Assembly: GCF_029338235.1 (NCBI RefSeq)
Contig: NZ_CP119785.1
Coordinates: forward strand, 868,001-932,000
Direction: 5' to 3'
DNA length: 64,000 nucleotides
Source of the DNA: Haloarcula rara
GTDB taxonomy: Archaea > Halobacteriota > Halobacteria > Halobacteriales > Haloarculaceae
In this document: one piece after another, positions 13,383-39,623 of the stretch
Position numbering within the stretch: position 1 is the stretch's first letter
Layout: each line of letters starts with the position of its first letter
Program-made: the position numbers and the translations under genes
Notes under the pieces: model-generated
Databases searched by the model: none
What the model was told of the DNA's origin: nothing
The model's input: the letters and a program-made list of their open reading frames with translations, nothing else

Positions 13383-13632
13383 AACAGCCAGAAATCCCCG
13401 CTAGCAGTGCAGGGTAACGGCACTGCAAACAGCCAGAAAGCCCCACCCATAGCCGGTTGGTCAAACAGCGCTGGGTGGGACTGAAAGGGGCGGCGGGCTC
13501 CGGGAAGGCGGGCGACGTAAGCACGCGAGCGGAGCGAGCGCGCGCAGCGAGCCCCCCGACCGGAGCCCGCCGGGGCTTTCTGGCTGTTAGCAACACTGTC
13601 GACCCAAACGGCTAGCGGGGCATTCTGGCCGT
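13383..13632 (+). repeat. Large nested inverted repeat / candidate structured RNA, copy A
   Basis: Two direct copies of a 17-nt motif, AACAGCCAGAAAGCCCC (13383-13399 with one change, and 13428-13444), are mirrored by an inverted copy at 13572-13588 and a degenerate one at 13611-13632. Inside are a CCCACCCA/TGGGTGGG hairpin (13443-13480 region) and a perfect 13-bp stem (13491-13503 with 13560-13572). It fills most of the 540-bp gap between the smc cluster and gatB; the rest of that gap shows no gene. A second copy is at 39419-39623. Confidence 0.8.
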
Positions 13633-15332: not shown

Positions 15333-17209
15333 TGACGATTGGTGAAGACCTGAGTCGTTTCGCCGAGGACGAACCCACCGCTCTCACGGCGGGGCTACTC
15401 GATGCGGTCCAGGACATCTTCTACGTCTGCGATAGGGACGGGACCGTCGTCGACTACAACGAACGGGTGCCGGAAGTGAGCGGCTACGCGGCCGAGGAGA
15501 TCGAGACGATGAAGATGTGGGAGTTCGTCCGCGAGGACGATCGAGCCCGGATCACCGAGCGCGTGACCGAGATTGTCGAGGACGGCGAGCGAATCCGAAC
15601 CGAGGGGCACTTCCTGACGGCCGATGGGGACTCGATTCCGTACGAGTTCTCCGGGTCACCGTTACGCGGTCAGGGCGGCGACATCGTCGGGTTCGCGGGT
15701 ACCGGTCGAGATATCGCGGAGCGCAAGCAGCGCAGGCGGGAGCTGGAACGCAAGACCCAGGCCATCGACGCGGCGCCGGTCGGAATCACTATCAGCGACC
15801 CCACACAGAACGACAACCCGCTCATCGATGCCAACTCCAGTTACGTACAGATGACGGGGTACGACGAATCGGCGGTGCTCGGACGGAACTGCCGGTTCCT
15901 GCAAGGCGAGGACACTGACGCGGTACCGGTCAGGAAGATGCGTGAGGCGATCGCGGAGGCGGAGCCGGTGACCGTCGAACTCCGAAACTACCGGGAAGAC
16001 GGCGAGCAGTTCTGGAACCGCGTCTCCATCGCACCGGTCACGGACGAGGACGGCACCGTCACGAACTTCGTCGGGTTCCAGCAGGACGTGACAGTTCGGA
16101 AGGAGCGCGAGACGGAACTGGAGCGCCAGAACGACCTCTTCGAGAAGGCACAGGACATCGCCGACGTCGGCGCGTGGGAGTACGACCCACACTCGGGGGA
16201 GACGTACTTCACGGACCAGGTGTACGAGATATACGGCGTCGGCCGGGACCACGAACCGGAGCCCGAGTCGGATATCCAGCAGTTCTACCATCCGGCGGAC
16301 CACGACACGGTTCGGGACGCCGTCGCAGGGGCCCTAGAGGACGGCGAGCCGTACGATATCGAGGTCCGCATCACCGCCGCCGACGGCACCGAGAAGTGGG
16401 TTCGCACGCGCGCAGATCCGCAGTTCGAAGACGGCGCCTGCCAGCGCGTCCGCGGGACCATCCAGGACGTCACCGACCGCAAGGAACGCGAGCAAGAACT
16501 CACGAGACAGCGCGATACCCTCGAACTGCTGGACCGGATGGTCCGTCACGACCTTCGCAACAACCTCCAGGTCGTCTCCGGGCACGCGGAGGCGCTCGCC
16601 GACCACGTCGACGAGGCCGGTCGGGAATCGGTCGAGAAGATACTCCACAACGTCGAGACGGCCGTCGGCCTGACGCGGTCCGCCCGAGACCTCGCGGAGG
16701 TGATGCTCCACGACAGCGACGCCGAGGGGGCGTTCTGGCTCCGGCCCGTCCTCGACGCCCAGATAGAGGAGGCCCGCGCAACCAGCCGGAACGCGTCCAT
16801 CACGCTCGCGGGACCGGTGCCAGACGTCCGCATCACCGGCGATGACCTGCTCCCGTCGGTGTTCAGGAACCTCCTGAAAAACGCCGTCCAGCACAACGAC
16901 AAACAGGTGGCCGAGGTCGTCGTGTCGGCGACCGAACGCGACGAGATGGCCCGTATCCAGATAGCCGACAACGGCCCGGGCGTCTCCGACGACCGGAAGG
17001 CGGAGATATTCGGGAAAGGCGAGATGGGTCTGGAGAGCGACGGGACGGGAATCGGGCTCTATCTGGTCAAGACGCTCGTCGATAGTTACGGCGGAACGAT
17101 TCGTATCGAGGACAGAGCGGACCGGAATCGCTCGGGCAGTCAGTCCCAGGCCGACGAAAACGACGCCGAGGGAGCCGTGTTCGTCGTCGATCTCCCGCTG
17201 GCGGCGTAG
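15332..17209 (+). CDS. LOV-PAS sensor histidine kinase
   Basis: Soluble histidine kinase of 625 residues with no membrane segments. It has PAS1 (about 17-130), a LOV-type PAS2 (about 145-255), PAS3 (about 275-385), a HisKA-like helix with MVRHDLRNNLQV (phospho-acceptor His406), and a HATPase_c domain with NLLKNAVQHN, IADNGPGV and GTGIGLYLVK. PAS2 has the flavin-photoadduct motif GRNCRFLQG with Cys187, plus the flavin-contacting Asn219, Asn229 and Gln250. These match blue-light LOV sensors, so FMN binding and light gating are predicted. The output partner is unknown; it is followed by a winged-helix gene and a DICT gene on the same strand. No response regulator is adjacent. Confidence 0.9.
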   Translation: MTIGEDLSRFAEDEPTALTAGLLDAVQDIFYVCDRDGTVVDYNERVPEVSGYAAEEIETMKMWEFVREDDRARITERVTEIVEDGERIRTEGHFLTADGDSIPYEFSGSPLRGQGGDIVGFAGTGRDIAERKQRRRELERKTQAIDAAPVGITISDPTQNDNPLIDANSSYVQMTGYDESAVLGRNCRFLQGEDTDAVPVRKMREAIAEAEPVTVELRNYREDGEQFWNRVSIAPVTDEDGTVTNFVGFQQDVTVRKERETELERQNDLFEKAQDIADVGAWEYDPHSGETYFTDQVYEIYGVGRDHEPEPESDIQQFYHPADHDTVRDAVAGALEDGEPYDIEVRITAADGTEKWVRTRADPQFEDGACQRVRGTIQDVTDRKEREQELTRQRDTLELLDRMVRHDLRNNLQVVSGHAEALADHVDEAGRESVEKILHNVETAVGLTRSARDLAEVMLHDSDAEGAFWLRPVLDAQIEEARATSRNASITLAGPVPDVRITGDDLLPSVFRNLLKNAVQHNDKQVAEVVVSATERDEMARIQIADNGPGVSDDRKAEIFGKGEMGLESDGTGIGLYLVKTLVDSYGGTIRIEDRADRNRSGSQSQADENDAEGAVFVVDLPLAA

Positions 17210-39418: not shown

Positions 39419-39623
39419 AACAGCCAGAAAGCCCCGCTCGCAGTTCGAGTGACCGTCATTGCCAACAGCCAGAAAGCCCCACCCGTAGCCGGTTGGTCAG
39501 CCGGCATGGGTGGGGCTGAAAGGGGCCGAGCTATGGACGAACCCCGGCGAAGTAAGCACCGCAGGCCGAAGGCCGAGGAGCACAACGAGCCGCGGGAGTC
39601 CATAGCTCGGGGGCTTTCTGGCT
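39419..39623 (+). repeat. Large nested inverted repeat / candidate structured RNA, copy B
   Basis: Copy of the element at 13383-13632. Two direct motifs AACAGCCAGAAAGCCCC lie at 39419-39435 and 39464-39480, with the inverted GGGGCTTTCTGGCT at 39610-39623. The inner CCCCACCC/GGGTGGGG hairpin and the following CTGAAAGGGGC are conserved. The 13-bp stem is CCGAGCTATGGAC (39525-39537) with its exact complement at 39598-39610, entirely different in sequence from copy A. It lies between the DUF2103 and truD genes. Confidence 0.8.

What the first reader, a model, noticed from the sequence alone, without database searches (positions are those of the whole stretch)
39419..39623. Compensatory change in the 13-bp stem between repeat copies A and B
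In copy A the stem is CGGCGGGCTCCGG with its exact complement 56 bases on; in copy B it is CCGAGCTATGGAC with its exact complement 60 bases on. The two sequences are different, yet both are perfectly paired, and the flanking CTGAAAGGGGC, GTAAGCAC and GGGGCTTTCTGGCT are conserved. Pairing preserved while sequence changes is the classic sign of selection for RNA (or cruciform) structure. The variable stem could also be a specificity element that differs per copy.
Basis: seen in the sequence. Interest (0 to 1): 0.78.

Follow-up and report, generated by a model that had tools for sequence, protein, structure and literature searches.

The report
Shape-conserved mobile hairpin repeats in haloarchaea
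The window holds two copies of a repeat found about a hundred times in this salt-loving archaeon and across almost its whole class; its hairpin stems keep their pairing while their sequence changes freely, so what is preserved is the folded shape, most likely of a small mobile DNA element.

Summary
Copies A (13431-13585) and B (39422-39623) belong to a dispersed intergenic repeat. The end motif GGGGCTTTCTGGCT occurs 118 times in this Haloarcula-genus genome (reversed-pattern control: 0).

The full element is an inverted palindrome: end / left arm / central hairpin / right arm / end, able to form an exact four-way junction. A and B are left-arm deletions. Each arm is a 12-13 bp freely variable stem above conserved internal loops. 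In 61 arms the named structure is 96.3% paired, with double-sided changes at 19 of 27 pairs; covariation score 0.579 against 0.146 shuffled and at most 0.10 slid. At the locus of copy B, five species carry five different stems, four perfectly paired.

A covariance model finds the arm in 124 of 145 Halobacteria genomes and in none of about 100 other genomes of the phylum. Rfam has no match; I found no description in the library held.

Most likely this is a REPIN/MITE-like mobile element recognised as a folded single strand. Whether that strand is DNA (favoured) or RNA is not settled. No RAYT transposase is associated. A guide role for the stem is not supported. A plasmid relative beside an RPA-like OB-fold gene is a lead.

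The parts
39422..39480 (-). Copy B: two reverse end motifs AGCCAGAAAGCCCC (39422-39435 and 39467-39480), 45 bp apart
   Evidence: exact matches; same 45-bp spacing at other copies
39481..39515 (+). Copy B: central hairpin region between the reverse end motif and CTGAAAGGGGC (left arm missing)
   Evidence: sequence
39516..39526 (+). Copy B: conserved junction motif CTGAAAGGGGC
39526..39538 (+). Copy B: variable stem, 5' side, CCGAGCTATGGAC
39539..39597 (+). Copy B: inner arm: conserved internal loops, GTAAGCAC, apical hairpin
39598..39610 (+). Copy B: variable stem, 3' side, GTCCATAGCTCGG
39610..39623 (+). Copy B: end motif GGGGCTTTCTGGCT
   Evidence: model R1 match at 39515-39618, 106.4 bits
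13386..13444 (-). Copy A: two reverse end motifs (13386-13399 with 1 mismatch, 13431-13444 exact), 45 bp apart
13445..13480 (+). Copy A: central hairpin region (left arm missing)
13481..13491 (+). Copy A: junction motif CTGAAAGGGGC
13491..13503 (+). Copy A: variable stem, 5' side, CGGCGGGCTCCGG
13504..13559 (+). Copy A: inner arm with conserved loops and apical hairpin
13560..13572 (+). Copy A: variable stem, 3' side
13572..13630 (+). Copy A: end motif GGGGCTTTCTGGCT (13572-13585) and a second, 2-mismatch end motif at 13617-13630
   Evidence: model R1 match at 13480-13580, 94.8 bits

Best explanation
The stems belong to a dispersed, non-coding, MITE/REPIN-like mobile element of the class Halobacteria. 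Shown: short conserved motifs at the ends, junction and internal loops; stem pairing kept while stem sequence varies; intergenic dispersal in many copies; loss of arms; inversion of the whole element in place; 45-54 bp tandem copies of the end unit; further hairpins inside arms. Inferred: an unknown protein recognises the folded single strand through its shape and conserved loops, so any paired stem is acceptable and compensatory changes pile up. Inferred with less certainty: the folded strand is DNA (cruciform or foldback), and recombination between copies, perhaps with hairpin-templated repair, reshuffles and re-pairs the arms. The recombinase or transposase is unknown.
For: 118 end motifs, control 0; modular structure of 61 clusters; covariation in 61 arms, 0.579 against 0.146 shuffled; 60 of 83 motif-selected arms perfect; five different stems at one orthologous locus, four perfect; same locus without the element in five relatives; in-place inversion with G011 and G005 elements 99% identical against 89-94% flanks; R1 in 124 of 145 Halobacteria genomes and none of about 100 outside the class; no gene-orientation preference in this genome; nested hairpins with C-G closed 3-nt loops in 93 of 107; exact four-way junction possible.
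Against: No target-site duplication or clean recent insertion was found; the apparent clean gap at the G011 locus is a deletion that keeps one end. No mobilising enzyme was identified: Y1 transposases are absent from three genomes with 20-25 end motifs and carry no end motif nearby where present. The G.T over A.C excess fits RNA as well as ssDNA and is weak in this genome alone, 10 to 5. Conserved internal loops over the class would also suit an RNA.
Confidence: 0.55

Rival explanations
1. A structured non-coding RNA, or an mRNA leader or trailer domain, is the functional form; the copies are dispersed RNA genes or regulatory elements and pairing is kept by selection on the transcript.
For: Internal loops conserved over the class; G.T over A.C mismatches 39 to 10 in one orientation; in other genera 28 of 40 arms point towards a co-directed downstream gene; a diverged single copy lies in a long non-coding region on plasmids.
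Against: The full element carries two arms in opposite orientation, so any transcript holds one arm in antisense; no orientation preference in this genome; nested hairpins have 3-nt loops closed by C-G and almost no tetraloops, 2 of 107; no Rfam match; copies decay with broken pairing or vanish at some loci.
Confidence: 0.27
2. A host-owned signal, such as a transcription terminator, insulator or chromosome-organising site, kept for its cruciform shape and spread by recombination rather than by its own mobility.
For: Almost always intergenic, at about 60 bp from gene ends and 90 bp from gene starts; CTAG 9.1-fold enriched in the flanks.
Against: Copy number differs from 0 to over 100 end motifs between species of one genus; copies occur in all gene orientations; loci without it are common; no T-run follows the arms by reading.
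Confidence: 0.12
3. The variable stem is a guide or specificity element that differs per copy.
For: Stems differ widely: 115 distinct in 152 arms. A small excess of 12-mer matches outside elements, 19 against a mono-shuffled mean of 8.
Against: Those matches are scattered single places in ordinary sequence with no common target and no element motif near, and the shuffle ignores codon bias; stems recur in different elements and obey one position pattern, T at position 8 in 146 of 152.
Confidence: 0.02

Closest known systems
REPINs (REP doublets; Pseudomonas, E. coli, Nostoc and others; PMC3116915)
   Same: Extragenic, short, non-coding; conserved inverted ends around a variable hairpin spacer with common compensatory changes; clusters formed by insertion into existing copies; tandem end units; two alternative folds, one long hairpin and one clover
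   Different: Here two large arms with conserved internal loops and a central hairpin; longer ends of other sequence; archaeal, class-wide; no RAYT transposase near copies, and none at all in some genomes with many copies
MITEs (for example those reported in Haloquadratum walsbyi, PMC3119063)
   Same: Small non-coding repeats with terminal inverted repeats in many intergenic places
   Different: No target-site duplication or parent transposon found; internal stems covary instead of being copies of one sequence
Double-hairpin and repetitive hairpin-forming elements of mitochondrial genomes (PMC2800124 and the Allomyces work cited there)
   Same: Dispersed mobile hairpins, multi-hairpin forms, insertion of hairpins into hairpins
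   Different: In the sponge elements stems are conserved and loops vary (PMC2800124); here the reverse; other domain of life
Integron attC sites (own knowledge)
   Same: Folded single strand recognised by structure and a few conserved unpaired bases, stem sequence free
   Different: No integrase, cassette or attachment-site array was seen, and none was searched for; an analogy in mode of recognition only

Membership tests
REPIN | Short conserved inverted ends flanking a spacer that forms a hairpin | tested here: met
REPIN | Compensatory changes in the spacer hairpin | tested here: met
REPIN | Dispersed in extragenic space | tested here: met
   52 of 61 clusters overlap no called gene (script gene calls)
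REPIN | Associated with a RAYT (Y1) transposase | tested here: not met
   Y1_Tnp absent from G001, G025 and G007, which hold 20-25 end motifs; no end motif within the fetched loci (about 1.5 kb each side) of 11 Y1 genes
MITE | Terminal inverted repeats, no coding capacity, many copies | tested here: met
MITE | Target-site duplication at insertion | tested here: inconclusive
   Loci without the element are either diverged or deletion remnants
MITE | Shares ends with an autonomous transposon | not tested
   Only Y1 transposases were examined
Known structured RNA family (Rfam 15) | Covariance-model match above the gathering score | tested here: not met
   none in the window or in six single-copy loci; weak chance-like miRNA hits only in five element loci, both strands
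Functional RNA in general | Transcription of the arm | not testable with these tools
   no expression data held
Integron attC site | Recombined by an IntI integrase | not tested
   named only as an analogy

The most novel reading that the evidence does not exclude
The chromosomal repeats descend from, and are served by, a plasmid-borne system: a long conserved non-coding region carrying the same arm, divergent from an RPA-like OB-fold protein found on 188 plasmid records, so that a single-strand-binding protein and a shape-coded hairpin form an archaeal mobile system unrelated to known transposases.
Probability: 0.12. Interest if true: 0.85.

Novelty: new variant of a known kind. Interest (0 to 1): 0.66.

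Why it matters
A class-wide archaeal repeat in which shape rather than stem sequence is conserved is a natural experiment in structure-coded recognition, with over a hundred different stems. It fills intergenic space in many haloarchaea, yet is absent from Rfam and, as far as the held literature shows, undescribed. Finding its binding protein would show whether archaea have their own structure-recognising mobile systems comparable to REPINs or attC sites.

Tried and rejected
Known RNA family: Rfam searches gave nothing real. tRNA: none in the window. RAYT mobilisation: not supported. Guide role of the stem: not supported. Phage origin: no phage record matches. Link to the 108-nt insertion of halococcal 5S rRNA, suggested only by its length and hairpin form: not tested, its sequence was not at hand. 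Copy at G000:C1:1215559 as a single-copy parent gene in this genome: 34.5 bits only, beside a uL16-like gene and not an RPA-like one, and the RPA-like protein is missing here apart from a 41% match to one domain; not claimed. A simple script for apical loops that allowed only Watson-Crick pairs failed on many arms because of mismatched pairs near the loop; the follow-up pattern count also catches a conserved 3' segment, so it is not used as evidence. CTAG, 9.1-fold enriched within 100 bp outside the ends and mostly 30-50 bp away: real but unexplained. Literature searches returned no description; most subscription papers are not held, so prior description cannot be excluded.

Full report
What is there. 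The finding is correct in substance. Copy B has CCGAGCTATGGAC at 39526-39538 with its exact complement at 39598-39610; copy A has CGGCGGGCTCCGG at 13491-13503 with its complement at 13560-13572. The spacer of B is 59 nt, not 60. B lies between the 3' end of a TruD-like gene and the start of a DUF2103 gene, A upstream of a GatB-like gene (TruD and GatB named by reading the protein, not by a search).

Scale. The end motif GGGGCTTTCTGGCT occurs 118 times in this genome (57 forward, 61 reverse; reversed control 0). One relative of the genus, G023, has a contig of the same length (305,109 bp) as a Haloarcula mannanilytica record, so the genus is taken to be Haloarcula. I fetched 61 clusters of the repeat. 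The full form is: end motif reversed, left arm, GCCCCTTTCAG, a central hairpin of about 40 bp, CTGAAAGGGGC, right arm, end motif. Left and right arms are inverted versions of one arm type with independent stems. Many copies, including A and B, have lost one arm. The end unit is repeated in tandem at 45, 48 or 54 bp at some copies. Further perfect hairpins and hairpin pairs sit inside arms. As one DNA strand, a full element can fold as an exact four-way junction (-91.7 kcal/mol) or as one long hairpin (-97.4).

Covariation. Selected by flanking motifs only, 83 arms of this genome gave 60 perfect 12-bp stems, and 75 with at least 10 pairs; mixing arms gives a mean of 6.1. In 152 arms of the genus there are 115 distinct stems, 99 arms perfect. 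An alignment of 61 arms from the window, the genus and other haloarchaeal genera was tested against a named structure of 27 pairs: 96.3% of cells paired, 19 pairs with changes on both sides, 375 such cells, score 0.579, against 0.146 in shuffles and 0.06-0.10 in slid versions. Caveat: these arms were chosen to have at least 10 of 12 outer stem pairs, so the outer stem is favoured by selection; helices 4 and 5 were not selected and still covary (7 of 10 pairs change on both sides).

Orthologues. At the TruD locus, relatives G007, G009, G024 and G025 carry the element with right-arm stems CGCGGTCTCGGC (two G.T pairs), GGCCGTCTGAAC, CGTGCGCTCAAC and CGCGCTCTGGAC, against CGAGCTATGGAC here; all but the first are perfect. 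G014, G020, G022, G029 and G030 have only a short intergenic gap and no element. Part of this difference is arm exchange: the left arm of G009 resembles the right arm of G024, as after an inversion. At another locus the whole element is inverted between G011/G018 and G005/G027, with G011 and G005 elements 99% identical while flanks are 89-94%. There, G031, G021, G019 and G028 keep a remnant of one end, so they are deletions, and G008, G002 and G004 keep a decayed copy with broken pairing. The element is therefore not essential at any one locus.

Spread. Model R1, built from the 61 arms, finds 92 arms here, matches in 124 of 145 Halobacteria genomes from 50 of 58 genera, many at the scoring limit, and none in about 100 genomes of the phylum outside the class (stricter filters were used in both class and phylum searches). 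An exact 15-mer scan returned named haloarchaea of many genera with paired arms; the few bacterial hits show no paired stem.

Form of the active strand. Within stems, G.T mismatches exceed A.C mismatches in the sense orientation, 39 to 10 under a threshold that favours neither, 35 to 10 when each stem is counted once. This suggests that one strand of the arm is the one that folds, but it fits RNA and ssDNA alike; it comes mostly from relatives (29 to 5), whose copies are partly shared by descent, and is weak in this genome alone (10 to 5). For DNA speak the inverted symmetry of the whole element, no gene-orientation preference here, and nested hairpins with 3-nt loops all closed by C-G (93 of 107), a loop type known to be very stable in DNA (own knowledge), where RNA usually shows tetraloops. 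For RNA speak the class-wide internal loops and a tilt of arms towards downstream genes in other genera (28 of 40). I favour DNA, without certainty. Gene calls in these counts came from a simple script, not a trained gene finder.

Plasmid relative. In genomes poor in arms, R1 finds a diverged single copy with conserved sequence upstream of it, divergent from an RPA-like OB-fold protein in the four loci whose genes I listed. That protein is on 188 plasmid records, and the arm was found beside it in three of four plasmid regions examined; in pNRC100 R1 found none. In one of the three the arm is of the standard chromosomal type (96.9 bits). The link to the chromosomal repeats is by structure and sequence of the arm only; a functional link is a hypothesis.

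Verdict. The best reading is a mobile, shape-recognised repeat that works like a REPIN but is not one by membership, since the RAYT association fails. Its mobiliser and binding protein are unknown.

Noticed in passing
L309-L312, L314, L316, L317; plasmid loci L337-L339: A diverged or standard arm lies in a long non-coding region divergent from an RPA-like OB-fold 'DNA-binding protein' that occurs on 188 haloarchaeal plasmid records; the protein is missing from the genome of the window.
   Followed up: partly
flanks of the 61 elements in G000: CTAG is 9.1-fold enriched within 100 bp outside the element ends, mostly at 30-50 bp (67 of 122 flanks), for no known reason.
   Followed up: partly
G000:C1:1097498-1097691, 1916034-1916272, 1968149-1968603: Four- to six-fold tandem arrays of the end unit with 45 or 48 bp period, identical or nearly so within an array but different between arrays, as if recently expanded.
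   Followed up: no
G005 and G027 at the locus of L323 and L328: An insert of about 90 bp with inverted ends (CTATAGTA ... TACTATAG) sits in the CTAG next to the element; looks like a separate MITE.
   Followed up: no
G000:C1:14584 and 2999579; G000:C2:13802 and 225885: Model matches with identical scores near both ends of each contig suggest untrimmed circular overlaps or large duplications in the assembly.
   Followed up: no
window 16727-16740: A one-mismatch end motif inside a histidine-kinase-like reading frame, without any other part of the element; taken as chance.
   Followed up: yes
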